This document shows, piece after piece, positions 32,964 to 57,585 of a stretch of 63,005 nt of DNA. Source of the DNA: an uncultured Actinomycetes bacterium (GTDB taxonomy: Bacteria > Actinomycetota > Thermoleophilia > Solirubrobacterales > Solirubrobacteraceae); the NCBI GenBank assembly GCA_937888775.1, contig CALAQT010000216.1:1-63005 (forward strand), given 5' to 3'. The translations under genes and the position numbers were made by a program. The notes beneath the pieces are model-generated. The model worked only from the letters and a program-made list of their open reading frames with translations, was not told the origin of the DNA and made no database searches. Position 1 is the first letter of the stretch; the number at the start of each line of letters is the position of its first letter.

Positions 32964-33009
32964 TGGTCGGGGCGACTGGATTCGAACCAGCGACCCCCTG
33001 CTCCCAAAG
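32964..33009 (-). pseudogene. 3' half of the disrupted native tRNA-Pro(TGG); left border of the island
   Basis: The minus strand gives the anticodon loop TTTGGGA, the 3' side of the anticodon stem (GCAGG), the T-arm CTGGTTCGAATCCAG, the acceptor strand CGCCCCG, discriminator A and CCA. Beyond the loop the 5' half is missing and foreign sequence starts. The matching 5' half is at 57,546-57,585. The halves share the 9-bp core ctcccaaag (here 33,001-33,009) and join into a perfect tRNA. Confidence 0.93.
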
Positions 33010-33592
33010 TATGGGGGTCTAAAACGTATTCGCGAGGGCTCTTAGGCATCCTGCCGTCGGTTCTTGCCGAAGGGGTGAAGTGGGCTGATCCGGTGAGAGG
33101 ATGCTGGCTTCGGCAGCGAGCCCGTCGTCGGCGGCAACCGTCCCTGTCAGGCAGGCTGCGCACGCCGATCACGCCGAAGCCCCGCTGTGCGCGGACTAGG
33201 TTCCGGCGGGCGTCGGCAGTCCTGACGAGGCGCCGTCCTTTGGCGCTCGATCGGCCGGCTCTTTCGGTTAGGCCGCTTCTCGCGGCTCTATCTAACACCG
33301 CTTTCGGTGACGACTAGCCTTCCAAGCCGAATGTCGCTGGTTCGAGTCTCGCCTCCCCCGCACTGGACGCCGAGAGGCCAACTCATCGTGACCTGACCTT
33401 GGCGTGGAGTGCTGAGAGTCGAATGTGTGGCCCGTCGACGATCCCGAAAAGGTTTGCATTGTGTGAGGGGAGGCCAGCCATTCTTGCGCGCGCCTGAATC
33501 TGAATACGTGGATCACGCTGCAGTTGTGATGCGTGGTGCTTGCCACCCTGCCACTGCGCTCCGAGAGTTGATAAGTGGTCGGGCTTGTCTGG
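33010..33592. other. Left-end non-coding region of unit A
   Basis: Holds the unit left-end motif (33,010-33,040) and a tRNA-Gly 3' half (33,314-33,361). The rest has no coding pattern. Confidence 0.5.
33314..33361 (+). pseudogene. 3' half of a foreign tRNA-Gly(TCC)
   Basis: Plus-strand CTAGCCTTCCAAGC is identical to the anticodon arm of the resident tRNA-Gly(TCC). It is followed by a T-arm (GCTGGTTCGAGTCTCGC) and acceptor strand CCCCCGC. The 5' half is absent and CCA is not encoded. It is a typical scar of integration into a tRNA-Gly gene, carried into this place. Confidence 0.75.
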
Positions 33593-36016
33593 TCAGGCGG
33601 CGGCGACGCGGTTGCCGTGTAGCAGCAGTTCCAGGTCAGCAGCGGGCACCGGCCGCGAGTACAGGTAGCCCTGCGCGAGGCGACATCCCATCGCGTGCAG
33701 TGCCTCGTGCTGCTCCTCCGATTCCACCCCCTCGGCGACAGTTGCCAAACCCAGTGCCGCGCCGAGGTCGAGCAGAACTTTGACCAGCGGTTGAGATGAG
33801 GTGACGGTCACCTGATCCACAAAGGACTTGTCGATCTTGAGCAGATCGACATCGAATTGCTGGAGGTAGGTGAGCGACGAGTATCCGGTTCCAAAGTCGT
33901 CGAGAGCTAGCCGCACCCCGTCCGACCGCACGCTCCGCAGTTGGGTCTGCGCTGCCCCGGCACCTTCGATGAGTCCACTCTCGGTGAGCTCGATAACGAG
34001 CGCATCAGCGGGAAGGCCGCTGTTTGCGAGAGCCGCGCGTACTGCCGTTTCGAATTCGAGCCGCTGCAACTGAACACTGCTCGCGTTGACGGTTAGGTAC
34101 AGCGGCACGCCCAGCTGAGTGCGCCATTGCTGCACCGTGCGACACGCGTCCTTCAGTACCCAGGCCCCCACGTCGACGATCAGTCCAGTACGTTCCAGAT
34201 CCGCGATGAACCGTCCCGGGGCCAGAAGTCCGAGGCGGCCATGCTGCCAGCGCACCAGCGCCTCCACACCGACGATCCGTTGCGTCGCCACCTCGACGAT
34301 CGGCTGATAGTGGACAACGAACTGATCGGCCGACAGAGCCGCTTCTAACTCCGCGCGCCACCGTACCTGCTCGTCGAGGGCAGCCTCGAGGCCTGACGTG
34401 TAGACCACGAGCGCGTTGTCTTCAGTTGCGTCGCCCATTGACACGGCGATTTCGGCTCTGCGCAGCATCTCGTGCGCCTCGTGAGCGCCGTGACCACCAC
34501 TGACCAGGCCGATCCTTCCCCGTACACGGACCGGTCGGGCATCGACTTCTATCGGCTCCTCCAATGATTTGAGCAAACGGCGGCCGATGCTGACTGCGTC
34601 GTCGAGCGACGTCCCATCGTCGAGAAGAACGCCGAACTGTTCACCAGCGAGATGCGCGGCCAGGTCGCCCCCACGAAGGCCCATCTGCAAACGGCGACCC
34701 GTGATGACCAGGATGCGGTCCCCAGCCGTGCGACCCAAGCGGTCGATGATCTCATTGAACTCCGCGAGTTCGATGAGCAAGAGCGTGCAGTCGCCCTGTG
34801 CGGTATTGAGTGCGTCGTTGATTCGCCGTCGCAGCAAGTCACGGTTTGGCAGCCCGGTGAGGCCGTCATGGCTGAGGGTGTGCAGGAGGCCGGCACCTTC
34901 GAACAAAGCGAGGCTCTGCCTGACCACGACCAGCGCGATCAGGGTGATGATGCTGACGAGGAGGAACGTGTCAATGCCGTGCTGGGCGGTGATGCGCCAG
35001 ATCGCGACGGCAGCCGCGATTGCTACGGGAAGGTAGGGCGCCGCGACGCGCAGCCGCGATGGCAGGGGCGCCCGTGCCGCCGATGAACCGGCACTGGTCC
35101 CAGCCTGCATGCCTGCAAGCGCGATGAGCAGAAAGGCTGCGACCCATGCGCTGTCAAGTGGGGTGCCGCTGGCGAAACTGCCTGTCGCCGTGAAGTACGC
35201 GAAGCTGCTGTCAGCCAGGGCGCTGGCAGTGACCCCAGCCGCGAGGAGGAGGAGGGGAGTTCTGGTGCTGGCGCGAGCGCGGGTGGCGAGGAGGAGTGCC
35301 ATGGTGACAATGGCGATGTCGCTGATCGGATAGGCGAGACTCAAGACCATGCCAAGCGGGCTGTCGGAGCCTCCGGAATAGATGGCGCTGAGCAGCGTCG
35401 ACCAGCTGATCACGAGCAGTGCCGTTGCGATGATCAGGCCGTCGACGCCCGTTTGCATGCGCGCCGCCGCCCCGCGAATGAGCTGCGGAAATCCGAGCAA
35501 CCCCGCGATCATCAATGGGACTGCGCCGAGGAAACCCACATCGGCGAGGGACGGGAAGGGAACGGGCGTGTTTTGGATCAGCTCGTACCAGCACCAGGCC
35601 AGTTCACCCGCCGCCCAGGTGGCGCAGGACGCGGCTATCAGCGCCCAGGAGCGCCTGTCCCGGCCAGAGAGGCGACGGGTGGCGACCGCACAGGCGATGG
35701 CGCCGGCAACCGCCGCTCCGAGCTCGCCCAGGTCATCCACCCACATGGTGACCGTCACACCGCCGATGTGGATGAACAACCACAACGCAAACATGCTCAC
35801 CGCAACGAGCACCACGAGGTATCTCGCGGACGGACGTCGTAGCCGGCTTCCTGTTGGGGGGTAGACGCCTGCGACGTTGGGTAGCCGCTTCGTGTGGTTG
35901 ATCTCAAACACTCGATTGGCGGGGCGCAGCGTCGCGGAAACGCTTTGGAGCTCCCTGGCACGAACCCAGAGGAGGGTGGAGTGACGCGCAAGCGCCGCAC
36001 CGCACTCCGGAAGCAT
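33593..36016 (-). CDS. Membrane GGDEF/EAL protein, likely c-di-GMP phosphodiesterase
   Basis: An 807-aa protein with an N-terminal membrane region of about nine helices (roughly 65-370), a GGDEF domain and an EAL domain. The cyclase signature is degenerate (GGDLAAHLAGEQF instead of GGDEF/GGEEF), so diguanylate cyclase activity is unlikely. The EAL domain keeps VEALVRW, DDFGTGYSS, KIDKSF and AEGVE, so it should hydrolyse c-di-GMP. The start is uncertain; residues before about 60 look poorly structured. It stands alone near the left end of unit A. Confidence 0.88.
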   Translation of the reverse strand: MLPECGAALARHSTLLWVRARELQSVSATLRPANRVFEINHTKRLPNVAGVYPPTGSRLRRPSARYLVVLVAVSMFALWLFIHIGGVTVTMWVDDLGELGAAVAGAIACAVATRRLSGRDRRSWALIAASCATWAAGELAWCWYELIQNTPVPFPSLADVGFLGAVPLMIAGLLGFPQLIRGAAARMQTGVDGLIIATALLVISWSTLLSAIYSGGSDSPLGMVLSLAYPISDIAIVTMALLLATRARASTRTPLLLLAAGVTASALADSSFAYFTATGSFASGTPLDSAWVAAFLLIALAGMQAGTSAGSSAARAPLPSRLRVAAPYLPVAIAAAVAIWRITAQHGIDTFLLVSIITLIALVVVRQSLALFEGAGLLHTLSHDGLTGLPNRDLLRRRINDALNTAQGDCTLLLIELAEFNEIIDRLGRTAGDRILVITGRRLQMGLRGGDLAAHLAGEQFGVLLDDGTSLDDAVSIGRRLLKSLEEPIEVDARPVRVRGRIGLVSGGHGAHEAHEMLRRAEIAVSMGDATEDNALVVYTSGLEAALDEQVRWRAELEAALSADQFVVHYQPIVEVATQRIVGVEALVRWQHGRLGLLAPGRFIADLERTGLIVDVGAWVLKDACRTVQQWRTQLGVPLYLTVNASSVQLQRLEFETAVRAALANSGLPADALVIELTESGLIEGAGAAQTQLRSVRSDGVRLALDDFGTGYSSLTYLQQFDVDLLKIDKSFVDQVTVTSSQPLVKVLLDLGAALGLATVAEGVESEEQHEALHAMGCRLAQGYLYSRPVPAADLELLLHGNRVAAA

Positions 36017-36207
36017 GCTTCGAGGCGATGACTGTGCCGAACGCCCCCATCAAACACGATCGCTTTGTCAGGGTTAATCGCATCAAGATCACTCTACGGC
36101 TCCCTAGGGTTCTTTCAAGACGCCTCGGTGACAGATATGTCCGTATCTCTCGTACCGTGCCCCAGGCGGAGCCAATCTCCCATGGGGGACGGCCACACAC
36201 GAAATCT

Positions 36208-36213
36208 TAAGCT
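36208..36213 (+). promoter_or_regulatory. -10 hexamer of a leaderless promoter
   Basis: TAAGCT lies 6 nt before the ATG at 36220 with no Shine-Dalgarno sequence. Confidence 0.5.
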
Positions 36214-36219
36214 CAGGCA

Positions 36220-36807
36220 ATGGCTGAGCCCCCTTCTTGGAACAGCGCCTATCAGGGAGCACCACCCTGGGACATTGGCGGCCCGCAGCCCGAGTTCGTG
36301 AAGCTGGCCGACGCGGGGAAGCTTCGCGGGCGGGTCCTGGACGCCGGGTGCGGGACTGGTGAGCAGGTGCTGTTGGCCGCGAGGCATGGCGCGGAGGCCA
36401 TGGGGGTCGACATCGCGGACCTCGCGATCGAGCGTGCGCGAGCCAAAGCAGAGGAGCGTGGGATCAGCGCGACGTTTCAGGTGGCGGATGTGCTCCACCT
36501 CGAGCAGTTGGGGCGGCAGTTCGATGTCGTCACCGACAGTGGCGTGTTCCACGTCTTTGACGACGAGCAGCGCCCGATATACGTCAGCAGCCTGAGGTCG
36601 GTCCTTCGCCCCGGCGGCATGTATTACATGATGTGCTTTAGCGATCGCCAGCCCGGGGACTGGGGACCGCGCCGCGTGTCGCAACAGGAGTTGAGCGCCG
36701 CATTCGCAGACGGCTGGTCGATCGGGTCGATCGAAGCAGTGAAGTTCGCGGTCACCATCGACCTCGAGGGGGCTCACGCGTGGCTCGCGACGATCGAACG
36801 CTTATGA
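36220..36807 (+). CDS. Class I SAM-dependent methyltransferase
   Basis: A 195-aa cytoplasmic methyltransferase. Motif I is VLDAGCGTGEQVL, the acidic motif II GVDIADLAI, and later motifs FQVADVLHL and LRSVLRPGGMYY. The N-terminal PSWNSAYQGAPPWDIGGPQPE opening resembles thiopurine/tellurite-type methyltransferases of the TehB/TPMT group. The substrate is not predictable. It is a single-gene unit with its own promoter. Confidence 0.88.
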   Translation: MAEPPSWNSAYQGAPPWDIGGPQPEFVKLADAGKLRGRVLDAGCGTGEQVLLAARHGAEAMGVDIADLAIERARAKAEERGISATFQVADVLHLEQLGRQFDVVTDSGVFHVFDDEQRPIYVSSLRSVLRPGGMYYMMCFSDRQPGDWGPRRVSQQELSAAFADGWSIGSIEAVKFAVTIDLEGAHAWLATIERL

Positions 36808-37159
36808 CCGTCGTCTCCATAGGGTCGTGGTCAGATCTGTCTACTCTGGAGTCTCGGCAACGGATCCGCGGCGGGGCCCCAATTCGCAGACTGACCGGGC
36901 CGTCGCCTCGGTGCCGGCCTGCCCTGGGTGTTGTCCCCTTTACCTACCTGGCGGACTGAGCCTGTGCGAACACTCGGACCGTCCGGGGTTGGCGCCACAC
37001 AGCCGGGGACTCGTACTCGGCGAGGGGTCACCGACTCAGCGTGGGCGGAGCTGTGGCGCGGACGGCGGGCGCGGGCTGAAGAACGGCAGGGCCACCCGCG
37101 CGATTGACTGCCACGGCGGCGGAGATGCCACCGACGACGACGACGGCGTCGGGGAGCCG
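36808..37159. other. Non-coding spacer
   Basis: No protein-like frame or RNA gene seen between the methyltransferase and hicB. Confidence 0.4.
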
Positions 37160-37384
37160 TCAGGCAGCCACCGTGACGGTTAGGGTCTGGGGCGTCCCGA
37201 TCTGATCGGGAACCGGCTCGCCATCCGCCTCGAGGCCGGCTATGTGCACGGCAATCGCCTCTGCGGCTCTCTCCCGGCACTCGTCGACCGTCCTGCCCTG
37301 GGTGAAGCAGCCCGGCAGAGCAGGGACCAGCACCATGAATCCGCCGGTTTCCTCAGGTTCGAGCACGACGGTGTACGTCCTCAT
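37160..37384 (-). CDS. hicB: HicB-family antitoxin
   Basis: A 74-aa antitoxin with the partial RNase-H-like HicB fold (TYTVVLEPEETGGFMVLVPALPGCFTQG..., then an ECRERAAEAIAVHI helix). It lacks a long C-terminal DNA-binding domain, as in the short HicB class. It follows hicA by 12 bp on the same strand, forming a type II toxin-antitoxin pair inside the island. Confidence 0.88.
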   Translation of the reverse strand: MRTYTVVLEPEETGGFMVLVPALPGCFTQGRTVDECRERAAEAIAVHIAGLEADGEPVPDQIGTPQTLTVTVAA

Positions 37385-37396
37385 GCGGTCATCCTC

Positions 37397-37624
37397 TCAC
37401 AGAGCAGCGCGGAACTCGTCTGGGCTGATGCCGGCTTGCGAAAGTATTGAGCGGAGCAGGCCAGGCCCGATTGTCTCTCCCGCGTGAAGAGGCACGGTGA
37501 CGCGCCCACCGCGCTCCGGGTGCTTGAGTTGCGCGTGCGAGCCCTTCTGGACGACGAGCACCCAACCAAGATGGTTGACTGCCCGGACGATCTCGCGGCC
37601 GGTGATGCGCGGGAGCGGCGGCAT
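37397..37624 (-). CDS. hicA: HicA-family mRNA-interferase toxin
   Basis: A 75-aa double-stranded-RNA-binding-like toxin that cleaves mRNA. It shows the HicA pattern: PRITGREIVRAV, the catalytic histidine in KGSHAQLKHP, VTVPLHAGETIGPGLLRSIL and ISPDEF. ATG 37624 is the correct start; a longer frame reaching 37753 reads through a tRNA fragment and is an artefact. The gene lies just downstream of a tRNA-Pro scar. Toxin-antitoxin pairs stabilise islands such as this one. Confidence 0.9.
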   Translation of the reverse strand: MPPLPRITGREIVRAVNHLGWVLVVQKGSHAQLKHPERGGRVTVPLHAGETIGPGLLRSILSQAGISPDEFRAAL

Positions 37625-37714
37625 CCCTGTACCGTACTTCGGCCGCGCCAGCGGAGGGCAAACAATCCAGCGTACTGTGCCTGCCGGTACGGCGGTGGAC
37701 TGAAGGCGAAACGC

Positions 37715-37749
37715 GTGGTCGGGGCGGCGGGACTCGAACCCACGACCTC
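37715..37749 (-). pseudogene. 3' fragment of the island-type tRNA-Pro
   Basis: 35 bp identical to the 3' end (T-arm, acceptor, CCA) of the complete island tRNA-Pro at 57,441-57,475. The anticodon arm and 5' half are gone. It is a truncated fourth copy of the unit right-end cassette, marking an older junction inside unit A. Confidence 0.85.
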
Positions 37750-37815
37750 CCATCTCGGTGTCCCCCTGTCGCTACGGGAGCCTCCGGCCCTCTCGCGTGG
37801 GGCAGCCGACAGAGC

Positions 37816-37821
37816 TAGGCT
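37816..37821 (+). promoter_or_regulatory. -10 hexamer of a leaderless promoter
   Basis: TAGGCT lies 6 nt before the ATG at 37828; no Shine-Dalgarno sequence. Confidence 0.45.
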
Positions 37822-37827
37822 CGAGGC

Positions 37828-39060
37828 ATGACGGGAAACCACATCCATTCAGGACGGCGTCTCCTCGGCTATGCAGCCTCCGTGGTGGCGCCGATCGCGG
37901 TCACGTTGGCTCTGCTATCCCTCAGTGGCGGCGTCTCGCGCGACTACATCTTCATCTACCTCGCCGTTGTCGCCATCTTGGCCGTCCTCAGCGGCCTCGT
38001 CCCAGCGCTGCTTGCCGCCGCCGCGAGCTTCCTTCTCGTCGATTGGTTCTTCGTTCTCCCGCTCCACACCCTGACGATTGCGGATCAGACCGACGTTATC
38101 AACCTCCTGGTGTTTTTCGGCACCGCGGGGCTGGTCGGCGGCCTCGGCTCACGACGTCGAGCCGCCCAGCTGCGCGCCGAGGCACTCGGTTCCGACCTGA
38201 GAGCCGCTAACCAAGACCTGGAACGCTTGAACCTCGAGCAATCTCGTGCGGCTGCCACAGCGCTTCAGCTCGCTCAGACACGACAACAGGTGCTTCTGCT
38301 CACCGAGAGCGACAGGCTGCGACGGGAGTTGCTCGCCAGTGTGTCCCACGAGCTCAGAACACCCCTGGCAAGCCTTCTCACTGGCACGACCGCGCTCATG
38401 GCCCTCGATGACCTTGACCCACGGGTGCGCCGCCGACTCACCGCCCTGGAGGGTGAGGAGCGGCGGCTGTCCCGGTTGGTGTCCGACCTACTCGATATGG
38501 CTCGCATCGAGGGGCATACACTGGATCTCCGGCTGCGCGATCTTGACCTAACCGAAGCGGTCGCCGCCGCGGTTGAACGCAGCCGCTACACGCATCCCGA
38601 CCGCGAGATCAGGACGGCGCGGAGCGGACCCCCACTCGAGGTCGTGGCCGACTGGGATCGCCTGGGACAAATCCTAGACAACCTCATTGCCAACGCCCAC
38701 CGGCACGGCGACGCTGGCATGCCCATTGAGATCTCTGTTGTGCGCGGGCTGCGGGGGATGGCCGTCACGCGCGTGCTGGACGAAGGCCCGGGCGTCCCGC
38801 CCGAACTGCGCGACACCATCTTCGAGCGCTTTGTTCGGGGGCCCTCCTCGTCAAACGAGCCCGCGGGTATTGGGCTGGGTTTGGCGATCGTCCGCGGCTT
38901 GGTGGAAGCCCAAGCCGGTCGAGTGTGGCTCGAAGACGGAGACTCTGGACGCTTTGCGTTCAGTCTCCCTCTCGCCGAGAGAGTCGCGTCACCCGACGGC
39001 GGCGAGGATGCGCACGTCGACGTCAACACGCGACCGGATGGTCCTGCGCAGCATCGCTGA
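37828..39060 (+). CDS. KdpD-type sensor histidine kinase lacking the KdpD/Usp N-terminus
   Basis: A 410-aa membrane kinase equal to the C-terminal half of KdpD. Four closely packed helices (about 13-105, DUF4118) are followed by a coiled linker, a HisKA domain with phospho-acceptor H174 in SVSHELRTPL, and HATPase motifs N (NLIANAHRHG), G1 (DEGPGVP) and G2 (GIGLGLAIV). The regulatory KdpD-Usp part is encoded separately at 45,280-47,556. It is convergent with kdpC and probably phosphorylates KdpE and possibly the second OmpR-type regulator. Confidence 0.9.
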   Translation: MTGNHIHSGRRLLGYAASVVAPIAVTLALLSLSGGVSRDYIFIYLAVVAILAVLSGLVPALLAAAASFLLVDWFFVLPLHTLTIADQTDVINLLVFFGTAGLVGGLGSRRRAAQLRAEALGSDLRAANQDLERLNLEQSRAAATALQLAQTRQQVLLLTESDRLRRELLASVSHELRTPLASLLTGTTALMALDDLDPRVRRRLTALEGEERRLSRLVSDLLDMARIEGHTLDLRLRDLDLTEAVAAAVERSRYTHPDREIRTARSGPPLEVVADWDRLGQILDNLIANAHRHGDAGMPIEISVVRGLRGMAVTRVLDEGPGVPPELRDTIFERFVRGPSSSNEPAGIGLGLAIVRGLVEAQAGRVWLEDGDSGRFAFSLPLAERVASPDGGEDAHVDVNTRPDGPAQHR

Positions 39061-39163
39061 TCTGTGATGCTCACCGCGGGGCATCTCGACCTCAGGGATG
39101 CGGTGGTCGCCGGTCTGACCAGTCCGGGCGATGGTGGCTACCGAGCTCTGGACGGCGTCTACC

Positions 39164-39898
39164 TCAGCCAGCTGCACCGTTATCAAGGGCCAGGTTGAGC
39201 TGCAGCACGTTGATGTAAGGGGATCCGAAGATCCCCAGGGACCGTCCACTCAGGTGGTCCTCCACGACCTGGCGCAGGCGTGTGGCGTCGAGGTGGCGGG
39301 CAGTGGCGACCATGCTGACCTGCGCCAGCGCCGCGGCCTCACTGATGTCGGGATCGAACCCCGTGAAGTCTCCGGTGACCAGGTCGACTGGCATCGGAGC
39401 GTCGGTCCCATCTGGGTTCTTGGCGACGCCCAGACTGTGGAGATAGGTTGTGTATTCCGTCACATGCGTGATGAGGATGGAGTTGCTCGGGCCCAGGTTG
39501 CTTCCGATTGAAGAAGCGGCGTTGCACGCTGGCTGGACCAGGCTGCTCGTGGTGGACCCATTGGGGTTCGTCGTCGAGGCGAAGAGCCAGAGAGGGCGGC
39601 TCTGGAAGTACTTGGGATCCACGGCAAAGTACATGTCGTTGCCGGACTTGTCCTTCATCGTCTGGTAGGTGACGTTCCCGCTCGAATCCTTGATCGTCTT
39701 GTAGTAGCACTGGCCGATCAGCGTGGATCCCACGACGTTGCCCTGGGCGTCGGTGACCAGGCTCCCGTTGGCCTGGTTATGAAACGCCACCTGGCTGATC
39801 CCGGTCATCACCAGCGGGTAGGCGATGCCGCAGACGATGGTGATGGCCAGGGTGATACGCGTTCCCACCCAGAGGTCGTGGAGGAGCTTGCGATACAT
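39164..39898 (-). CDS. kdpC: Potassium-transporting ATPase subunit KdpC
   Basis: A 244-aa single-helix subunit that stabilises the KdpFABC complex and raises its K+ affinity. An N-terminal helix (TRITLAITIVCGIAYPLVMTG) is followed by a periplasmic domain with FQSRP, GPSNSIL-like and LGIFGSPYINVLQLN motifs. It is longer than the usual ~190 aa because of an insert around residues 60-95. It is the last gene of the kdp operon, 12 bp after kdpB. Confidence 0.92.
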   Translation of the reverse strand: MYRKLLHDLWVGTRITLAITIVCGIAYPLVMTGISQVAFHNQANGSLVTDAQGNVVGSTLIGQCYYKTIKDSSGNVTYQTMKDKSGNDMYFAVDPKYFQSRPLWLFASTTNPNGSTTSSLVQPACNAASSIGSNLGPSNSILITHVTEYTTYLHSLGVAKNPDGTDAPMPVDLVTGDFTGFDPDISEAAALAQVSMVATARHLDATRLRQVVEDHLSGRSLGIFGSPYINVLQLNLALDNGAAG

Positions 39899-39910
39899 GT
39901 GAATGACCTC

Positions 39911-41995: not shown

Positions 41996-42003
41996 TCCTG
42001 CTC

Positions 42004-43921: not shown

Positions 43922-43962
43922 GGTGCACCCTCTCGCATGCCGCACATCCTCGGCTCGCACCC

Positions 43963-47938: not shown

Positions 47939-47961
47939 GAGATTATCGTGTCGCTGCGCTG

Positions 47962-48909: not shown

Positions 48910-48981
48910 GAAGAACTCCAGGTGGGGTGGCTGTTGCTGCGGCCTGATATGACGGGCCGGGCGCGGGACGCGGTCCGCGGT

Positions 48982-49251: not shown

Positions 49252-49258
49252 ACAAGCG

Positions 49259-49264
49259 AGGCTA
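49259..49264 (-). promoter_or_regulatory. -10 hexamer of box-controlled leaderless promoter
   Basis: TAGCCT, 11 nt after the GTTGAG box and 7 nt before ATG 49251. Confidence 0.6.
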
Positions 49265-49275
49265 CACAGTCAACC

Positions 49276-49292
49276 CTCAACGCAAGCTCAAC
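49276..49292 (-). promoter_or_regulatory. GTTGAG direct-repeat box upstream of the second regulator operon
   Basis: Minus strand GTTGAG-CTTGC-GTTGAG, followed by TAGCCT after 11 nt. Confidence 0.78.
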
Positions 49293-49360
49293 GATCTCCC
49301 CGAGGGCGCCCTATTGGGAACACAGACCAGGTCACAGCGCGGACGGCGTGCTCAGCGACG

Positions 49361-50758: not shown

Positions 50759-50862
50759 CCTGGCCCGGCACCGGTGGGCGTGATGCTCACGCTGCCGACC
50801 AGACTTCCCGGCTCACCCGTCGTCAGTATACCGGCATCGAGCCAGGCGCGTTGACCGTGCGT

Positions 50863-51027
50863 TCACGCAAGCCGACGTGCGGTCAGGTCTTCGCCTGCGA
50901 AAAGGTCGTCGCGAATGTCGCGGTCGAGTGCGATGTATTCGCGCAGGGGTTGGCAGTCGGCACGGTTGTATTCTTTGGCCCGTTTCGCTCCCGGGGTAAT
51001 GATGCGGAGCGCGCGGTGACCCTTGAT
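50863..51027 (-). pseudogene. Unidentified gene remnant
   Basis: About 54 in-frame codons on the minus strand end at the stop 50,863-50,865 and read like protein (RIITPGAKRAKEYNRADCQP, LREYIALDRDIRDDLFAGED). There is no start codon and a TAG lies just upstream. A decayed tail next to the tRNA-Pro cassette; family not recognised. Confidence 0.4.
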
Positions 51028-51192
51028 CTACCTGATCGCGACGGAGTCGTCCGCGCCCATCTCGCTGAGCGGCCGCACTGCGTGGTTGAGATCTATTGAG
51101 CCCGCCCAAGGTCACGACGTGTCTCGCGACCCGCCGCCGTCGCCGAGGATCCGCTGAAGCGAACACGGCGAAAACTGCCCTGCGTCTGACAG

Positions 51193-51265
51193 TCGGGGCG
51201 GCGGGACTCGAACCCACGACCTCCTGGTCCCAAACCAGGCGCGCTACCGTCTGCGCTACGCCCCG
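51193..51265 (-). tRNA. Island tRNA-Pro (TGG), copy 1
   Basis: Complete cloverleaf: acceptor CGGGGCG/CGCCCCG, D-arm, anticodon stem CCTGG/CCAGG with loop TTTGGGA (anticodon TGG), and T-arm GTGGGTTCGAGTCCCGC. CCA is not encoded. It differs from the native split tRNA-Pro in all loops and stems except the acceptor, so it is foreign. It is the right-end cassette of unit A. Confidence 0.93.
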
Positions 51266-51294
51266 AGGCATCCGGGGCCCACGCAGACCAGCGC

Positions 51295-51303
51295 CTCCCA
51301 AAC
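51295..51303. repeat. Core site at unit A/B junction
   Basis: ctcccaaac, one mismatch to the 9-bp core. The left flank gcg is the right-end type and the right flank tatgggggtctaat the left-end type, so this is a hybrid attachment site. Confidence 0.8.
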
Positions 51304-51448
51304 TATGGGGGTCTAATTCGAGTTCAGCGGATGCGTTGGACCACCTGCCTGCCATTGTCGACAGCAGACTGGAGTGCCCTTGAACCGCAGCCCTGGCCGC
51401 GCCATCCCAAACAGAGCCGTCTCCAGAGAGCCAGGGCGATTCATGGAC

Positions 51449-51598
51449 TCAGGCTGCCGTCGTTGGTTGATGGAGAGCCTCGAACTCCGTCGGCGCGAGG
51501 TCCCCGCAGGCGCTGTGCAGACGGCGCTGGTTGTGCCAATCGACCCACTCGAGCGTCGCCGGCTCGACGTCTTCGACGGTGCGCCACGGACCTCGGCG
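51449..51598 (-). pseudogene. IS3-family transposase C-terminal remnant
   Basis: Minus-strand reading gives RRGPWRTVEDVEPATLEWVD, then WHNQRRLHSACGDLAPTEFE and a stop at 51,449-51,451. This is the conserved C-terminus of IS3-family OrfB integrase-type transposases. The rest of the IS is missing, so it is inactive. Confidence 0.85.
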
Positions 51599-51765
51599 CG
51601 CACATGATTCGTCGCATGTCAAATGACCTCTCAGTGCGGGTCATTAGACCCCTGTCTTTACCGATCAACGTGATATGCGCAGTCGATGCGCACTACAACG
51701 CAACCTCTCTGTGACAAGCGCCGGCCATCATGGGTTGGTAGTTCCACCATTACAGAGGGAGCCTG

Positions 51766-54120
51766 GTGACCGCACCTGACCCGGTGCCCAAGATCGGACG
51801 GAGACTGCTTACGTCGGAGCGGTTCCGTGTGGGGATCCTGGGGCTCTGCATGATCGTGCCCGTCGTCGCGAGCATAGTGGCCGTCCACGACCTCGACGAG
51901 AACGCCCGCCACAGGATGGACGCGTCGCTCGTGGTCGCGAGCGTGGTCAGCACGGCTGATGAGCTGCTCTTTGTGGAGTGGCAGGGCATCACTGGATCCA
52001 TTCCCGATGCTTCAGTGCACCCGCACGTCGTCGCCCTCCTCGGCGAGATCGACGCGAACCTGAAGAGCCTGCAACTGGACGGCGTGGCTCCGGCGGCGGT
52101 CACCGATCTGGGCAATGCAGCCCGCGCCTACACCACGGCGATCACGGGCGGCAGCAACGGCGTGCAGGTCCCGGGCGGCCAGCTCGACCTCTTCGCTGGA
52201 GGTCCGCTCAAGGTTCTCAACACATACGAGGCCGTCCATACCGCATCGGATCGCGCCCAGAGTGCCCTCAAAGTGGACAACGATAGCGCGGCACTGCTGC
52301 AGGACATCGGCACGATCGTGGTCATCCTTGCTGTCTGCGCCGCGGTCACGGCGCTGCTGTGGCGATCGCAGCGCCGCCGCCGCGTCATGGCCGTTGCAGC
52401 GGCGGAGACGGACGTACTGCGCAAGAGTGAGGAGAGGTTCCGCCTTCTATTCGAGCGCAACCCGCAACCAATGTGGGTGTTAGGGCCAGACAGTCTTCGC
52501 ATCACCATGGTCAACGATGCCGCAGTAGCCGCCTACGGCTACAGTCATGACACATTCCTGACGATGGAGGTCACCGAGCTCTTTGTCGACGCGAAGAGCT
52601 CCGAACCCGTGCGCCAGATGGTTGCGGGAGCTGATTCATGCCACGCAACCGCCTCGCACCGGCTCGCGGATGGTCGGGTCATCGAGGTCGAGATGACGTC
52701 AGACCGTTCTGTTCTCCAAGGGCAGCACGGCATCCTGCTCCTCGCCCAAGACGTGACCGACCGAAACCGTCTGGAGGAGCAGTTGCGCCACCAGGCGTTC
52801 CACGATCCACTGACGAGCTTGCCCAACCGGGCTCTTTTTCGAGAGCGAGTGCACCATGCAGTTCTGCGCGGCCGGCGCACCGGCCTCGGTTGTGCCGTGG
52901 TCATCCTCGACCTCGACGATTTCAAGACGGTCAACGACAGCCTTGGCCATTCTGCCGGCGACGACCTGCTCGTCCAAGTCGCCGACCGGATCCCCAAGGT
53001 GATGAGGCCCGGCGACACCGTCGCGCGGCTCGGAGGCGACGAGTTTGCCATTCTGGTCGAGGACGTGGCCGACCCGAGCCACGTCACGAACCTTGTCGAG
53101 CGGATTGCGGAGGTCCTTTCGCAGACCTTCCGGGTCTTCGACATCGACATGCATGTCAGCGCCAGCATTGGCATCGCCTTTGATGACTCCGGCGACTCGG
53201 TCGTCCCGGAGGGCTTGATCCGCAACGCGGACGTCGCCATGTATGCGGCGAAGGCGCGCGGTGAAGGTGGCTGGGCACTCTTCGGCGAAGACATGCACGA
53301 GATCGTGCAGAAGCGGCTGGAGTTGCGGGCGGCTCTCAGCCGCGCCGTCGAGAACAGAGAGCTTGTGGTCCACTACCAGCCGATTGTCGACCTCCACGGC
53401 CGCCAGCTCATCGGTCTCGAAGCCTTGGTTCGCTGGGAACATCCAACCAAAGGGCTGCTGCCTCCAATGGAATTCATCACGCTGGCTGAGGAGACGGGGC
53501 AGATCGGCGCGATCGGCGCGTATGTACTCGCGGAGGCAGCAAGTCACGTGCGCGGTTGGACAGAGCGCTACCCTGATCAGCCTCCGCTGGAGCTGAGTGT
53601 GAACGTCTCCTTCCGCGAGTTGATGTCCATCGACTTCGTCGATCAGACCTTGCGGATTCTCGACGAGACCGGCCTCGATCCCCACCAGCTCGTTCTGGAG
53701 GTCACGGAGACCGTGTTGATGCAGGATCCCGAGCGAACCATCGGCAGCCTCGAGCGCCTCCGCCGCCACGGCATCCGGATCGCCATGGACGACTTCGGCA
53801 CCGGGTACTCATCGCTCGCTCATCTGCGGCAGCTGCCGCTGGATGTCGTCAAGATCGACCGGTCCTTCGTGATGTCGATCGGCAGTGGTACGGAGGACGT
53901 TTCCATGATGCTGGCAATCGTCCGGTTGCTCAGCACGCTCAAGGTGGTCACGCTGGCCGAGGGCATCGAGACGCCTGCGCAACTCGACTCCGTCGGCGCC
54001 ATGGGATGCGACCTCGGGCAGGGATTCCTGTTCGCCCATCCCCTGCCCGCGAACGAGGTGGAGCCGCTGCTCGAGACCCGCGTCACGCCCATGCATGTGA
54101 GGCAAGACAACGTTGCCTAG
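51766..54120 (+). CDS. PAS-GGDEF-EAL c-di-GMP turnover protein
   Basis: A 784-aa membrane protein with two helices enclosing a periplasmic sensor domain (about 20-190), a PAS domain (about 225-340), GGDEF and EAL. The cyclase site RLGGDEF is intact and the phosphodiesterase motifs EALVRW, DDFGTGYSS, KIDRSF and AEGIE are intact, so it may be bifunctional. GTG 51766 follows agggagcct. It is coupled to the following lipoprotein gene (TTG start overlapping its stop region), which may act with its periplasmic sensor. Confidence 0.92.
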   Translation: MTAPDPVPKIGRRLLTSERFRVGILGLCMIVPVVASIVAVHDLDENARHRMDASLVVASVVSTADELLFVEWQGITGSIPDASVHPHVVALLGEIDANLKSLQLDGVAPAAVTDLGNAARAYTTAITGGSNGVQVPGGQLDLFAGGPLKVLNTYEAVHTASDRAQSALKVDNDSAALLQDIGTIVVILAVCAAVTALLWRSQRRRRVMAVAAAETDVLRKSEERFRLLFERNPQPMWVLGPDSLRITMVNDAAVAAYGYSHDTFLTMEVTELFVDAKSSEPVRQMVAGADSCHATASHRLADGRVIEVEMTSDRSVLQGQHGILLLAQDVTDRNRLEEQLRHQAFHDPLTSLPNRALFRERVHHAVLRGRRTGLGCAVVILDLDDFKTVNDSLGHSAGDDLLVQVADRIPKVMRPGDTVARLGGDEFAILVEDVADPSHVTNLVERIAEVLSQTFRVFDIDMHVSASIGIAFDDSGDSVVPEGLIRNADVAMYAAKARGEGGWALFGEDMHEIVQKRLELRAALSRAVENRELVVHYQPIVDLHGRQLIGLEALVRWEHPTKGLLPPMEFITLAEETGQIGAIGAYVLAEAASHVRGWTERYPDQPPLELSVNVSFRELMSIDFVDQTLRILDETGLDPHQLVLEVTETVLMQDPERTIGSLERLRRHGIRIAMDDFGTGYSSLAHLRQLPLDVVKIDRSFVMSIGSGTEDVSMMLAIVRLLSTLKVVTLAEGIETPAQLDSVGAMGCDLGQGFLFAHPLPANEVEPLLETRVTPMHVRQDNVA

Positions 54121-54589
54121 CCCACGCGGGACGGTGGCATCCATAGCCGGCGCGCTGGCCGGCACAGTGCTGCTCCTCGCCGGCTGCGGTTCCTCAGGCC
54201 CGGCGTCTCAAACGCCATCACCGTTGCCCACCGCGACCGCATCGCCGATCAGCAGAGACGCAACAGCGGGACGGAAGCCCGTCCTAGTCCTGGATCCAAC
54301 CCATGGGGCGCTGGGCGTCACCGTTCGCGTCACCGGCAGCGGATACGGACCCAACGTGATGCTCACCGGGACCATCTGCGCGGTGGACGCTCAGGGCAAC
54401 GTTCAGAACCCACTGGCGCAGTGCGACGTCACCAACATCGTCAGCGTGACGACCGATGGACACGGTGGTTTCGCGACTACCTACACGGTAAAGAGGCTTC
54501 CTGCTGCGAGGAGCGGGTACACGATCGGGTTTGGCATGTCCGGCGATTCCGGAGAGTCCGCGGGCAGCGCCTTCGCGATCGACGCTTGA
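54113..54589 (+). CDS. Secreted lipoprotein, 158 aa
   Basis: A TTG start at 54113 overlaps the end of the GGDEF/EAL gene. A signal peptide ends in lipobox LLAGC, followed by a Ser/Pro/Thr-rich tether and a beta-sandwich-like domain (LVLDPTHGALGVTVRVTGSG, YGPNVMLTGTICAVD) resembling IPT/TIG-type folds. Likely membrane-anchored on the outer face of the cytoplasmic membrane and functionally tied to the sensor domain of its neighbour. Confidence 0.75.
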   Translation: MPSPRGTVASIAGALAGTVLLLAGCGSSGPASQTPSPLPTATASPISRDATAGRKPVLVLDPTHGALGVTVRVTGSGYGPNVMLTGTICAVDAQGNVQNPLAQCDVTNIVSVTTDGHGGFATTYTVKRLPAARSGYTIGFGMSGDSGESAGSAFAIDA

Positions 54590-54904
54590 AAGCGAGAGCG
54601 ATCGGCGTTTGTCGATTCTGCGACTCGAACCGGCTGTTAGCGAGCTTAGTGTCCACGGACGTGGTGTATGAGGAGCCCCGGGGCGTCCTGACAAAGAAGG
54701 ACCATCGCGTCATCCTTGTCGAAGCTCTACCAACCTCAAGGAGACGACAGTGGCCACGACCAGCACGGACCCCTGGGCCTGGTTTCGCAAGCAGCTCGAG
54801 ACCGCCGACGCCAATGGCTTGGCCAGGTGAAGAAGCTCGGCCGGGTGCCACCCACACGTGCTGGCGACCATCGGCCGAGAAGGACCCGGGAGGATTCCCA
54901 ACAG
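54590..54904. other. Non-coding with transposase debris
   Basis: No intact gene. Contains the IS256 remnant at 54,750-54,830. Confidence 0.5.
54750..54830 (+). pseudogene. IS256-family transposase N-terminal remnant
   Basis: GTG 54750 with a caaggagacgaca ribosome site starts MATTSTDPWAWFRKQLETAD and stops after 26 codons. The opening matches IS256-type transposases of high-GC bacteria; the catalytic part is absent. Confidence 0.6.
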
Positions 54905-54977
54905 TCGGGGCGGCGGGGCTCGAACCCACGACCTCCTGGTCCCAAACCAGGCGCGCTACCGTCTGCGCTACGCCCCG
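54905..54977 (-). tRNA. Island tRNA-Pro (TGG), copy 2
   Basis: Same cloverleaf as copy 1 with one T-stem change (GAGCCCCGC instead of GAGTCCCGC), which still pairs. CCA is not encoded. Right-end cassette of unit B. Confidence 0.92.
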
Positions 54978-55006
54978 AGGCATTCGGGCCCCACGCAGAC
55001 CAGCGC

Positions 55007-55015
55007 CTCCCAAAG
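55007..55015. repeat. Core site at unit B/C junction
   Basis: ctcccaaag, identical to the borders. The left flank is the right-end type; the right flank is tatgggggtctaaatcgtat, the left-end type. Confidence 0.82.
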
Positions 55016-55569
55016 TATGGGGGTCTAAATCGTATTCGGAAGGGCTGTTAGACCTCCAGCCATCGTTTCGCCTCGATCCGTTGAACTGGCGTGACCGGCC
55101 GAGGCCCCCTAGCCTGAGCGACGCGGTCGATCATTGACGCGTTCAGCGGAAATACGACTCGGTGAGTGTCACGCGATGCACTCGACGGCGGTGTCTACCA
55201 GCCCAGGTTGTCGTCCCGCTCAGTGGAGGTCCTTGAACAGCAGTGCCAACGGGCCCTGCTCTGCGAGTCCCTCGAAGTAGCGACGCCACGGGCCTCGCTT
55301 CTGAGGATCCAGGATCCGCCGCAGCAGATGTACTGCTGCAGGACGTTCGACGCGGTCTCCGGCTGATCAAGCCCCCCAGCAGGTCGATGAGCCCGCTGCC
55401 GGCCACCACCCGTTGGCCTCGATGACAGCGCTCCTCGCTGGTCAGCCCGCGAGCGGCCCACCAAGAGTCGACCGGGCGGGTCGTCACCGTGCGGCCACAT
55501 CTCTTTGCCGCACCCACAGTACTCCGTGCACCCGGGGGCTGCCCTCGCTCGGCCCCGCCCACAGGGAAC
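55016..55569. other. Left-end region of unit C
   Basis: Holds the left-end motif and a short gene remnant (55,220-55,365). No intact gene is evident. Confidence 0.4.
55220..55365 (-). pseudogene. Unidentified gene remnant
   Basis: About 48 minus-strand codons end at the stop 55,220-55,222 and read VHLLRRILDPQKRGPWRRYF then EGLAEQGPLALLFKDLH, clearly protein-like. There is an upstream stop and no start codon. Family not recognised. Confidence 0.4.
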
Positions 55570-56370
55570 TCACCGGGCGGCAGAGATCCCGGAGGCGCGC
55601 CGCTCACGGGACGCCGGGTCCTGGCGGAAGAAGTCGCGGAGAACAGCGTACAACTCCGGCTTCTGCTCTTCGAGGTCGACCGGACGATCGAAGAAGACCT
55701 CGGTGACCACGGCGAAGAACTCGCCTGTGCTCACCGCACCGTACGGGTCGAGGAGGTCGCCGCCGGCGCCGTTGCGGAGCGTCGTGTACTCCGCGTTGCA
55801 CACCCTGACCCATCTGTCGAACTGGGCGCGTGACTCGAGCGGCGGGGTCCCGTCGACCGACCCGCCGAGCATGTCGAGCTTGTGCGCGAACTCGTGGTAG
55901 ACGACGTTGTGGCCGTGGTCGGGATGGCGGGCCTGGTACCGGGCCGAGTCCCACGCGATGAGAACGGGGCCGTCGTACCGAGCCTCTCCGATGATCGGCT
56001 CGGGCTCGTCGCTGTACACACCGTCGCCAACGTAGTGCTCGCCGTCGAGGATGACGGCCGTCGGCGAGACGATGATCGAGGTGACGCGGTGGTAGTAGTC
56101 GTAGTCGAGCCCGAGGATGAGCAGGCAGGCGATGGCGCTGATCACGACCCGGATGTCGTCGGTGAGCTCGAACCCGTACGACGCCTCCCAGTGTTTGTCG
56201 ACGAGCAGCACCCTGATCAGTGTCTCGAGCCGCACTCGCTCGTCGCCGTCGAGGAGCCGCCAGTGGGCCACGTTGGCCGCGAGCAGGTCACGCCACCCCG
56301 AGGGGAACGGCTGGGCGAGAGCCTTGCGGCGCCGTCCTCGGCGCGTCAGTGCCAACTCAGTCGACCGCAC
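55570..56370 (-). CDS. MtfA-like zinc-dependent peptidase (M90 family)
   Basis: A 266-aa cytoplasmic protein with the HExxH zinc motif in VVYHEFAHKLDML and conserved flanks (PVLIAWDSARYQARHPDHGHN; GEFFAVVTEVFFDRP, which supplies the further ligands). MtfA in E. coli binds the Mlc repressor and has aminopeptidase activity. GTG start at 56370. Divergent from aroH with a 76-bp gap. Confidence 0.88.
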   Translation of the reverse strand: MRSTELALTRRGRRRKALAQPFPSGWRDLLAANVAHWRLLDGDERVRLETLIRVLLVDKHWEASYGFELTDDIRVVISAIACLLILGLDYDYYHRVTSIIVSPTAVILDGEHYVGDGVYSDEPEPIIGEARYDGPVLIAWDSARYQARHPDHGHNVVYHEFAHKLDMLGGSVDGTPPLESRAQFDRWVRVCNAEYTTLRNGAGGDLLDPYGAVSTGEFFAVVTEVFFDRPVDLEEQKPELYAVLRDFFRQDPASRERRASGISAAR

Positions 56371-56446
56371 TCATCGCTCCACCTGACCATAACCAGTCGG
56401 CGGTCGGCCCGGCGCAGACGTGCCCGAACCCGACACCATAGAGCGC

Positions 56447-56809
56447 ATGACTGTCCGGGCCATCCGCGGAGGCACCCAGGTGGATGCCAACGAGCGCGCA
56501 CTCATCCTCGACGCCATCGCCGAGCTCGTCCACGCTGTGCTCGACCGCAACGGGCTCACCACCGACGACCTGGTGAGCATCATCTTCACCGCCACCGCCG
56601 ACCTCGACGCGGAGTTCCCCGCCTACGCGGCACGTCGCGCCGGCATCACCGACGTCCCCATGCTGTCGGCAACCGAGATCGACGTGCCCGATGCCATGCC
56701 GCGCGTGCTCCGCCTCCTCGCCCACGTGGAGACGGATCGGAGCCGCCGCGAGTTGCACCATGTGTACCTGCGCGGGGCGGCGGCGCTGCGCACCGACCTG
56801 CCCCAGTAG
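56447..56809 (+). CDS. aroH: Monofunctional chorismate mutase, AroH class
   Basis: A 120-aa enzyme converting chorismate to prephenate. It matches the trimeric Bacillus AroH fold: MTVRAIRGGTQVDANERALI (catalytic Arg7), IIFTATADLDAEFPAYAAR, and MPRVLRLLAHVETDR. ATG 56447 fits the family start; a GTG at 56420 would add nine residues. A housekeeping-type aromatic biosynthesis gene is unexpected cargo for a unit of this size and could be a second copy. Confidence 0.92.
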   Translation: MTVRAIRGGTQVDANERALILDAIAELVHAVLDRNGLTTDDLVSIIFTATADLDAEFPAYAARRAGITDVPMLSATEIDVPDAMPRVLRLLAHVETDRSRRELHHVYLRGAAALRTDLPQ

Positions 56810-57440
56810 CACCGTGCCGACCGCCCCGGGCTGGTACTGGCGGAGCGCGGCGAGAGTGAGTTGGCGCCAGGAGATCCGGCTGGGGCGGGAGACGAGGGTT
56901 TCCCGCGGGAGTACCACCGGCGCCGGCGGGGTTACTTCCGCTACCGGATCGCGTCGGCTGTCTGAACTGGAGTGACAGGCGAAGAGAGCCCGACCACGCT
57001 GTGGTAGCGCTGCGGCGCGTCTGTTCTTCCTCGACCTCAACGTCGATGACGAGGGCTTCGACCTGATCCGGATCACCGCTCTGGACGCCCAGGCCGCCTG
57101 AAAGGGGAGTCTGCCGGCCGGTGCGCGCATACATCGCGTCGAACTCCGGCGCCAGTTCGGCCAGCACCGCCTCCACCACCGGCTTGATCCGGCGGATCGG
57201 GTGGTCCATCGGGATCAGGCTGTCCGTGGTCAGGGTGGACAGCATCGTCGCCTGGTGGGTGGTGGTGCCACGCATAGTGAATCTAAGAGCCGACAGCACC
57301 GGTGAACGCCGCGCGCGCTGCGTCGGCGCGTGCTCATGGCCTTCATGTCGACCATTTGAGTGAGCAGGGTTGGCGCCGCGTTTCGGGGAGATAGGTGCTG
57401 ACCCGTCCACTTCATTGTCACGGCCACCACGCATACCTAT
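56810..57440. other. Gene debris between aroH and tRNA-Pro copy 3
   Basis: A plus-strand fragment ending at 57,101 reads LFFLDLNVDDEGFDLIRITA before its stop, an unidentified gene tail. It is followed by the IS5 remnant. Nothing intact. Confidence 0.4.
57110..57275 (-). pseudogene. IS5-family transposase N-terminal remnant
   Basis: From ATG 57275 the minus strand reads MRGTTTHQATMLSTLTTDSL, then IPMDHPIRRIKPVVEAVLAE and LAPEFDAMYARTGR, the classic IS5/IS1182-type opening. After that the frame degenerates and no DDE region follows. Confidence 0.8.
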
Positions 57441-57516
57441 TGGTCGGGGCGGCGGGACTCGAACCCACGACCTCCTGGTCCCAAACCAGGCGCGCTACCG
57501 TCTGCGCTACGCCCCG
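57441..57516 (-). tRNA. Island tRNA-Pro (TGG), copy 3
   Basis: Same sequence as copy 1, with CCA encoded at 57,441-57,443. It lies 29 bp downstream of the native tRNA 5' half on the same strand, so the native tRNA promoter would transcribe through the half-gene into this copy. It is the most likely functional replacement. Confidence 0.94.
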
Positions 57517-57545
57517 AGGCATCCGGGCCCCACGCAGACCAGCGC

Positions 57546-57585
57546 CTCCCAAAGCAGGTGCGCTACCGGGCTGCGCCACGCCCCG
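57546..57585 (-). pseudogene. 5' half of the disrupted native tRNA-Pro(TGG); right border of the island
   Basis: The minus strand reads CGGGGCG, D-arm GCGCAGCCCGGTAGCGC, CCTGC and loop TTTGGGA, then leaves the tRNA. The following GCGCTGG cannot pair with CCTGC, so the integration does not restore the tRNA. It complements the 3' half at 32,964-33,009. Confidence 0.93.

What the first reader, a model, noticed from the sequence alone, without database searches (positions are those of the whole stretch)
32964..57585. A native tRNA-Pro gene split 24.5 kb apart by a tandem integrated island
Seen: the tRNA-Pro(TGG) 3' half at 32,964-33,009 and 5' half at 57,546-57,585, same strand, share the 9-bp core ctcccaaag in the anticodon loop. 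Joined, they form a canonical tRNA: acceptor CGGGGCG/CGCCCCG, anticodon stem CCTGC/GCAGG, and CCA. The DNA between has two further hybrid core sites (51,295 and 55,007), so it is three units of 18.3, 3.7 and 2.5 kb stacked head to tail. Known: tyrosine recombinases often use tRNA anticodon loops. Inferred: serial integration at the same site.
Basis: partly seen in the sequence, partly recalled or inferred. Interest (0 to 1): 0.95.

Follow-up and report, generated by a model that had tools for sequence, protein, structure and literature searches.

The report
Stacked islands carrying replacement tRNA genes
In a bacterium that likely belongs to the candidate phylum Dormibacterota, three DNA islands sit head to tail inside a broken tRNA-proline gene; each carries a complete tRNA-proline gene of its own but no recognisable site-specific integrase, so the islands likely need an integrase from elsewhere and likely make the cell depend on the tRNA they brought.

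Summary
A tRNA-Pro(TGG) gene is split into 32,964-33,009 and 57,546-57,585; joined in a script, ARAGORN calls one canonical 77-nt tRNA, and neither half alone is called. Between them lie three head-to-tail units of 18,294, 3,712 and 2,539 bp. The units share an almost identical end (107-109 of 110 bp) and a 22-bp opposite end (21-22 of 22) but differ in cargo (Kdp potassium uptake, HicAB, GGDEF-EAL; another GGDEF-EAL; MtfA-like peptidase plus chorismate mutase). No site-specific recombinase, relaxase or replication gene was matched in them, only a DDE-transposase remnant.

So integration destroys the host tRNA without rebuilding it; the incoming tRNA would replace it. That is the logic of 'tRNA-dependent lysogeny' (phages, 2024), here in integrase-free, apparently non-phage units stacked in tandem, at tRNA-Pro, in a likely Dormibacterota host. 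Serial site-specific accretion by an integrase acting in trans is the preferred reading; recombinase source, empty site, dependence and expression remain untested. New variant of a known kind.

The parts
57546..57585 (-). native tRNA-Pro(TGG), 5' half, with the core at 57,546-57,553
   Evidence: with the 3' half forms a canonical tRNA; alone it gives no ARAGORN gene
32964..33009 (-). native tRNA-Pro(TGG), 3' half with encoded CCA, core at 33,001-33,008
33001..51294 (.). unit A, 18,294 bp: GGDEF-EAL, methyltransferase, HicAB, DUF4118 histidine kinase, KdpFABC, two response regulators, KdpD, DUF2254; probably two fused units
   Evidence: relic tRNA at 37,719-37,750
51295..55006 (.). unit B, 3,712 bp: PAS-GGDEF-EAL protein, DDE-transposase remnant
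55007..57545 (.). unit C, 2,539 bp: M90 peptidase (MtfA-like) and AroH-type chorismate mutase
51192..51265 (-). complete tRNA-Pro(TGG) of unit A (no encoded CCA; ends ACTG)
54904..54977 (-). complete tRNA-Pro(TGG) of unit B (no encoded CCA; ends ACTG)
57441..57516 (-). complete tRNA-Pro(TGG) of unit C with encoded CCA; lies just downstream of the native 5' half, hence the copy most likely to be expressed (inference)
51295..51302 (.). hybrid core A/B, CTCCCAAA (followed by C)
55007..55014 (.). hybrid core B/C, CTCCCAAA (followed by G)
57517..57545 (.). 29-bp spacer between core and tRNA, nearly identical in all three units (other copies 51,266-51,294 and 54,978-55,006)
33010..33022 (.). conserved opposite unit end TATGGGGGTCTAA (other copies 51,304-51,316 and 55,016-55,028)
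37719..37750 (-). relic 3' fragment of a unit-type tRNA-Pro, 32 of 32 identical; likely former unit boundary
37427..37600 (-). HicA toxin domain
   Evidence: residues 58-115 of the frame 37,400-37,771
37160..37384 (-). HicB-like antitoxin
39164..43811 (-). kdpC, kdpB, kdpA and a KdpF match
51452..51640 (-). remnant of a DDE transposase (rve_3, rve_2), likely IS3-type
   Evidence: the IS3 label is recalled
57596..57601 (-). TATGCT, -10-like box upstream of the native 5' half (read by eye; the strict promoter scan found none)
   Evidence: sequence; negative
57632..58846 (+). MarP-family serine protease, right chromosomal flank
31375..32841 (+). MFS transporter, left chromosomal flank

Best explanation
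Three DNA units, each with its own complete tRNA-Pro gene and with no recognisable site-specific integrase, sit head to tail in the anticodon loop of a broken tRNA-Pro gene; they were likely inserted one after another by a tyrosine integrase encoded elsewhere, and the unit-borne tRNA beside the old promoter likely replaces the broken one. Shown: the split gene, the 8-bp core, the hybrid attP-like junctions, the three complete tRNAs, the lack of a match to a site-specific recombinase. Inferred: each unit circularises as (conserved end)-core-(29-bp spacer + tRNA); the integrase recombines that attP with the TTTGGGA anticodon loop or with an att site already in the array; because attP shares only 8-9 bp with attB, no tRNA is rebuilt, so only a unit that brings a working tRNA-Pro would give a living cell. 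The tRNA of the outermost unit (57,441-57,516) would be read from the native promoter through the dead 5' half and released by RNase P; it alone of the three encodes CCA. The units are predicted to be hard to lose except by clean excision, which would restore the native gene.
For: Joined halves give one canonical tRNA, halves alone none. Complete tRNA-Pro in 3 of 3 units. Same ends, different cargo: tRNA-side block 107-109 of 110 identical, opposite end 21-22 of 22. Each internal junction equals unit end + core + next unit's spacer, and attB can be read from the outer two junctions. No site-specific recombinase matched in the annotated genes (Pfam, PHROGs or NCBIfam, not every library for every gene) or by Pfam in 84 of 126 further frames. 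Unit GC 0.64-0.67 against 0.70 in the flanks; third-position GC 0.82 against 0.91 in 12 genes that I picked from each (Mann-Whitney p 0.0017). Phage integrases that use the tRNA-Pro(TGG) anticodon loop exist: in 2 viral contigs an integrase frame lies right beside a tRNA-Pro half ending at this core. Published precedent that short-core integration needs an element-borne tRNA (PMC10865867; abstract, introduction and sections 10-11 seen).
Against: No relative of the units found: 1 genome-collection scan with a unit-end motif gave 4 loci in unrelated taxa with no tRNA-Pro in the fetched stretches, and 4 viral-collection scans with unit-end motifs gave 0. No empty site seen. No candidate helper integrase; the only integrase I found in the window (4,290-5,315) lies beside a tRNA-Gly. 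The strict promoter scan found no promoter near the tRNA of unit C. The predicted precursor RNA folds partly across the dead 5' half and the spacer, so processing is not assured. Host copy number of tRNA-Pro(TGG) is unknown, so dependence on the island is inferred.
Confidence: 0.6

Rival explanations
1. Decayed elements: each unit was once autonomous, integrated with its own integrase, and lost the integrase and transfer genes afterwards, leaving cis-mobilizable remnants (CIMEs) stacked by accretion.
For: This is the usual reading of tandem islands without recombinase (PMC5704250 passages; 15 module-less ssrA islands in Dehalococcoides, PMC3146451 passages). Unit A holds a relic tRNA and unit B a transposase remnant, so decay has happened.
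Against: No site-specific integrase fragment in 84 of 126 frames outside the genes, although the tRNA-side ends are still 97-99% identical; the smallest units hold open cargo genes and little else.
Confidence: 0.27
2. Single entry: the three units arrived together as one composite circle or plasmid-borne array and integrated once.
For: Each internal junction is an attP-like site, so a pre-formed array would look the same.
Against: Nothing direct; the opposite ends have diverged to 54-73 of 102, so the units have separate histories at least before joining.
Confidence: 0.2
3. Ordinary tRNA-restoring islands: the crossovers lie in the anticodon loops of the complete tRNAs, one half of which is rebuilt on integration, and the split gene is only a displaced fragment.
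For: The complete tRNAs contain the same TTTGGGA loop, and islands in tRNA genes are described as restoring the target (PMC4383910 passages).
Against: The two outer fragments pair with each other, stem CCTGC/GCAGG, while the complete tRNAs have CCTGG/CCAGG and differ from the joined native tRNA at 12-15 of 77 columns; similarity between units continues past the tRNA 5' end through spacer and core, and stops at the tRNA 3' end.
Confidence: 0.06
4. Assembly misjoin or homologous duplication around tRNA-Pro copies, without site-specific recombination.
For: Repeats of about 110 bp can mislead short-read assemblies; a GGDEF-EAL protein 98% identical to that of unit B (residues 1-340 compared) sits on a 3,688-bp contig elsewhere, about the length of unit B, as if that assembly broke at the repeats.
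Against: The outer fragments fit base for base as one gene and every junction lies at the same core; chance or homologous joins would not place all four at the anticodon-loop core.
Confidence: 0.05

Closest known systems
tRNA-dependent lysogeny (Guerrero-Bustamante and Hatfull 2024, PMC10865867)
   Same: Integration in a host tRNA gene through a short core (8-17 bp there, 8-9 bp here); the tRNA is not rebuilt; the element brings a complete tRNA of the same isotype.
   Different: There: temperate phages with their own tyrosine integrase; the positive rows of Table 2 target tRNA-Lys, -Ile2 and -Leu; hosts are Actinobacteria, with a Lactobacillus prophage (Lj965) mentioned as a possible case. Here: apparently non-phage cargo units without integrase, tRNA-Pro(TGG), three in tandem, likely Dormibacterota, tRNA placed directly beside attP.
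CIMEs and accretion islands (e.g. Dehalococcoides ssrA islands, PMC3146451; review PMC5704250; passages seen)
   Same: Tandem islands at one RNA gene, bounded by att sites, some without integration module, varied cargo.
   Different: The Dehalococcoides islands are bounded by ssrA or a 20-bp repeat of its 3' end, so the target stays whole; here the target is destroyed and each unit carries a whole replacement tRNA. The Dehalococcoides integrase is a serine recombinase.
Islander-type tRNA islands with anticodon-loop sites (PMC4383910, passages seen)
   Same: Crossover in the anticodon loop.
   Different: Islander looks for a restored target plus a fragment and an integrase gene, and counts a tandem only if each member has its own integrase; this array would likely be rejected.
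Tycheposons (PMC10872708 passages; original paper not seen)
   Same: Cargo elements bordered by a tRNA gene.
   Different: The description seen includes a tyrosine recombinase (xerD) within the element; none was matched here.

Membership tests
tRNA-dependent lysogeny | attB in a host tRNA, short common core, tRNA not reconstructed | tested here: met
   8-9 bp core; halves separated and not rebuilt
tRNA-dependent lysogeny | element carries a cognate tRNA of the same isotype | tested here: met
   3 of 3 units carry tRNA-Pro(TGG)
tRNA-dependent lysogeny | element is a temperate phage encoding a tyrosine integrase | tested here: not met
   no Phage_integrase match in the units; PHROGs, run on 10 frames only, gave no structural family
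tRNA-dependent lysogeny | element tRNA is required for survival of integrants | not testable with these tools
   needs genetics; host tRNA copy number unknown
CIME (cis-mobilizable element) | no integration or transfer genes | tested here: met
   none matched; 42 of 126 small or flank-overlapping frames not scanned
CIME (cis-mobilizable element) | retains attL and attR sites | tested here: met
   four junctions with the core and conserved arms; whether they still recombine is untested
CIME (cis-mobilizable element) | excision or transfer with a helper element at the same site | not testable with these tools
   no helper found; no reads or relatives available
Islander-type tRNA island | restored target tRNA plus displaced fragment | tested here: not met
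   two displaced halves, each lacking a rebuilt partner
Tycheposon | tyrosine recombinase within the element | tested here: not met

The most novel reading that the evidence does not exclude
A recombinase-free cassette system: ordinary chromosomal genes of Dormibacterota travel as small units, each tagged with a common attP and a replacement tRNA-Pro, and pile up at one tRNA anticodon loop under an integrase acting in trans, so that an essential tRNA works as the array's entry ticket and as its lock.
Probability: 0.3. Interest if true: 0.8.

Novelty: new variant of a known kind. Interest (0 to 1): 0.62.

Why it matters
It would extend tRNA-dependent integration, known from phages that carry their own integrase, to integrase-free gene cargo in a candidate phylum. 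If the host truly lives on the island's tRNA, an essential translation gene has been taken hostage by mobile DNA: partial loss of the island would be lethal and clean excision harmless, a simple way to stabilise accessory genes. It also shows that island finders which demand an integrase and a restored tRNA would likely miss such arrays, and gives a concrete signature to search for: half tRNA, core, short spacer, complete tRNA of the same isotype.

Tried and rejected
(1) Relatives of the units: one scan of the genome collection with a motif of 19 specified bases gave 4 loci (two Tissierellia, Burkholderiaceae, Mycoplasma); 0 of 4 has a tRNA-Pro in the fetched stretch; read as chance. Unit-end motifs gave 0 in four viral-collection scans. 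The unit end with its tRNA matched 120 plasmid and 292 phage records, none over 80% of the query; the rows listed (20 plasmids; 20 and 40 phage rows) cover at most 48%, the tRNA part. (2) Prophages in the same tRNA: a scan for core followed by a tRNA-Pro start gave 3 viral loci; only L007 has the order half tRNA, core, complete tRNA, but its half runs into a self-complementary stretch (by eye) and its record has no Phage_integrase match. A scan for 5' halves gave 20 loci: by eye 17 read on as an intact tRNA and 3 (L015, L016, L026) are cut after the core. In L015 and L016 a 371- and a 404-aa integrase frame lies right beside the half, with repeated arm-like motifs on both sides by eye: attP sites that would supply a 5' half. 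No whole tRNA in any of the 3 records and no integrase in the third. They show that phages target the tRNA-Pro anticodon loop, not this design. (3) MarP in viral contigs: 9 stretches matched a pattern, 0 confirmed. (4) The 29-bp spacer as a decayed tRNA 3' half: not significant (p 0.27-0.45); as an inverted tRNA 5' half: best of 8 tests p 0.024, rejected. (5) Strict sigma-70 promoter in 54,800-57,760: 0 found. (6) Plasmid homologues of the MtfA-like and GGDEF-EAL proteins: only below 60% identity. (7) Papers: 8 searches (one search gave 0); no listed title or abstract describes integrase-free tandem units with replacement tRNAs. Only listings, abstracts and passages were seen, apart from the sections named for PMC10865867.
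Full report
OBSERVATION. The two pieces of a tRNA-Pro(TGG) gene lie on the minus strand at 57,546-57,585 (5' part) and 32,964-33,009 (3' part). Joined in a script at the core, they give one tRNA-Pro(TGG) of 77 nt with paired acceptor (CGGGGCG/CGCCCCG), anticodon (CCTGC/GCAGG) and T stems and an encoded CCA; neither flank alone is called. CTCCCAAAG occurs three times in the window against 0.20 expected. The fourth site, at 51,295, has CTCCCAAAC, so the core common to all junctions is 8 bp. The units measure 18,294, 3,712 and 2,539 bp.

ARAGORN and Rfam find a complete tRNA-Pro(TGG) in each of the three units: 51,192-51,265, 54,904-54,977 and 57,441-57,516 (the anticodon is from ARAGORN). In each, reading the minus strand, the order is core, 29-bp spacer, complete tRNA, cargo, conserved end, next core. 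The unit tRNAs differ from the native one (62-65 of 77 aligned columns identical, anticodon stem CCTGG/CCAGG) and are nearly identical to each other. Only the outermost, 57,441-57,516, encodes CCA; the other two end in ACTG. A 32-nt exact copy of the unit tRNA's 3' part at 37,719-37,750 suggests that unit A is a fusion of two units of about 4.7 and 13.5 kb (inference).

UNIT ENDS. The tRNA-side block (tRNA, spacer, core; 110 bp) is identical at 107-109 of 110 positions between units. The opposite end is identical at 21-22 of the first 22 positions (CTCCCAAA, G or C, TATGGGGGTCTAA), then 19-31 of 40, then 11-20 of 40, the last near the random mean of 27% for one pair and above it for the others. 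On the other side similarity stops at the 3' end of the tRNA. Shared ends with unlike cargo point to related elements, not duplications of one. GACCCCC lies on opposite sides of the core in attB and attP, which could be an integrase core-site pair; that is my reading by eye, untested.

CARGO. Unit A: GGDEF-EAL, methyltransferase, HicB and HicA, DUF4118 histidine kinase, KdpC/B/A with a KdpF match, two response regulators, KdpD sensor protein, DUF2254. Unit B: PAS-GGDEF-EAL and a remnant matching rve_3 and rve_2, i.e. a DDE transposase (the IS3 assignment is recalled). Unit C: M90 peptidase (MtfA-like) and AroH-type chorismate mutase. No Phage_integrase, resolvase, relaxase or replication protein was matched among these genes, nor by Pfam in 84 of the 126 stop-to-stop frames of 40 aa or more that lie mostly outside them. 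The 42 frames left out are of at most 54 aa or run into the flanks (listed). Frames with more than 60% of their length inside a listed gene, on either strand, were not scanned. KdpC and AroH were scanned with NCBIfam only. GC is 0.64-0.67 in the units and 0.70 in the flanks; third-position GC 0.82 against 0.91 in 12 genes picked from each.

HOST. Of the 120 listed relatives of the right-flank MarP protein, 14 bear an organism name: 13 are Candidatus Dormibacteraeota/Dormibacteria/Dormibacter (60-79% identical), one is Streptosporangiaceae (61%). For the unit C peptidase the four named relatives at 73-80% are Dormibacteria or Dormiibacterota and the five named ones at 56-68% are Binatia, Actinobacteria or Acidimicrobiales, so this cargo likely comes from the host's own phylum. 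The unit B sensor region has one 98% copy, one relative at 60% and otherwise only partial matches below 50%. No genome is held for the window, so tRNA gene number and empty sites could not be checked.

MECHANISM. attP, read from the array, is conserved end + core + spacer; attB, read from the outer junctions, is the anticodon stem-loop. They share only 8-9 bp, so recombination cuts the tRNA and rebuilds nothing. The published phage case shows that such an event yields viable cells efficiently only if the element supplies the tRNA (PMC10865867; abstract, introduction, sections 10 and 11 seen). By inference the same holds here. The native promoter side (a TATGCT box at 57,596-57,601, by eye; strict scan negative) now reads the dead 5' half, the core, the spacer and the tRNA of unit C. 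The predicted precursor folds somewhat more stably than shuffles (z -1.97; 8 of 200 shuffles as stable), with pairs between the dead half and the spacer, an argument against easy processing.

WHERE DOES THE INTEGRASE COME FROM. No unit encodes a recognisable one. The only site-specific integrase gene found, 4,290-5,315, lies beside a tRNA-Gly at 5,513 in what looks like another island; I scanned only some genes of the flanks. Phage integrases for the tRNA-Pro anticodon loop do exist: in viral contigs L015 and L016 an integrase frame of 371 and 404 aa lies directly beside a tRNA-Pro(TGG) half that ends at the same core; those attP sites carry the 5' half, so they would rebuild the gene. A helper in trans is my preferred reading; decay of once autonomous elements (CIMEs) is the main rival, favoured by precedent in Dehalococcoides, where 15 ssrA islands lack the integration module (PMC3146451 passages).

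KNOWN KINDS. Islander lists 3,919 islands, 2,083 with anticodon-centred sites and only 4 tandems of three or more, and asks for an integrase in each member of a tandem (PMC4383910 passages). The positive rows for tRNA-dependent lysogeny list Lys, Ile2 and Leu targets, all phages, with a Lactobacillus prophage named as a possible further case. A Sinorhizobium paper mentions substitution of a host tRNA by a phage-borne tRNA (PMC11476347 passages). My searches listed no description of integrase-free tandem units with replacement tRNAs; I saw listings and passages only.

VERDICT. Real, not chance, and more interesting than first described; a new combination of two known principles rather than a new kind. 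Expression, dependence, serial order and the source of the integrase are untested.

Noticed in passing
window 1-5,600: Lower-GC region (0.60-0.62 in 1-4,000) with a Phage_integrase gene (4,290-5,315) beside tRNA-Gly(TCC) 5,513-5,588: probably a separate integrated element cut by the window edge.
   Followed up: partly
window 33,329-33,360: A tRNA 3'-half-like stretch on the + strand (8 mismatches in 32 to the unit tRNA), opposite in direction to the other tRNA pieces, about 330 bp inside unit A.
   Followed up: no
window 37,160-37,750: HicA and HicB genes sit directly beside the relic tRNA fragment, at the likely old boundary inside unit A.
   Followed up: partly
window 36,220-36,807: The methyltransferase of unit A matches part of a PADLOC model (mad2, residues 36-164 to model positions 292-415 of 492); probably only the shared methyltransferase fold.
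   Followed up: no
L015 1-500, L016 1,700-2,200: Viral contigs with a tRNA-Pro(TGG) 5' half ending at the anticodon-loop core, repeated GGGACTATTCCGG motifs on both sides (by eye) and an integrase frame directly beside it: attP sites that would supply the 5' half of tRNA-Pro.
   Followed up: partly
L007 2,029-2,120 (- strand): A viral contig with half tRNA-Pro, core, about 30 nt, complete tRNA-Pro; the half continues into a self-complementary stretch.
   Followed up: partly
window 57,517-57,545 and copies: The 29-bp spacer, read on the + strand, weakly resembles the D-arm side of the unit tRNA (p 0.024 as best of 8 tests): not significant, but the spacer's strong conservation is unexplained.
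   Followed up: partly
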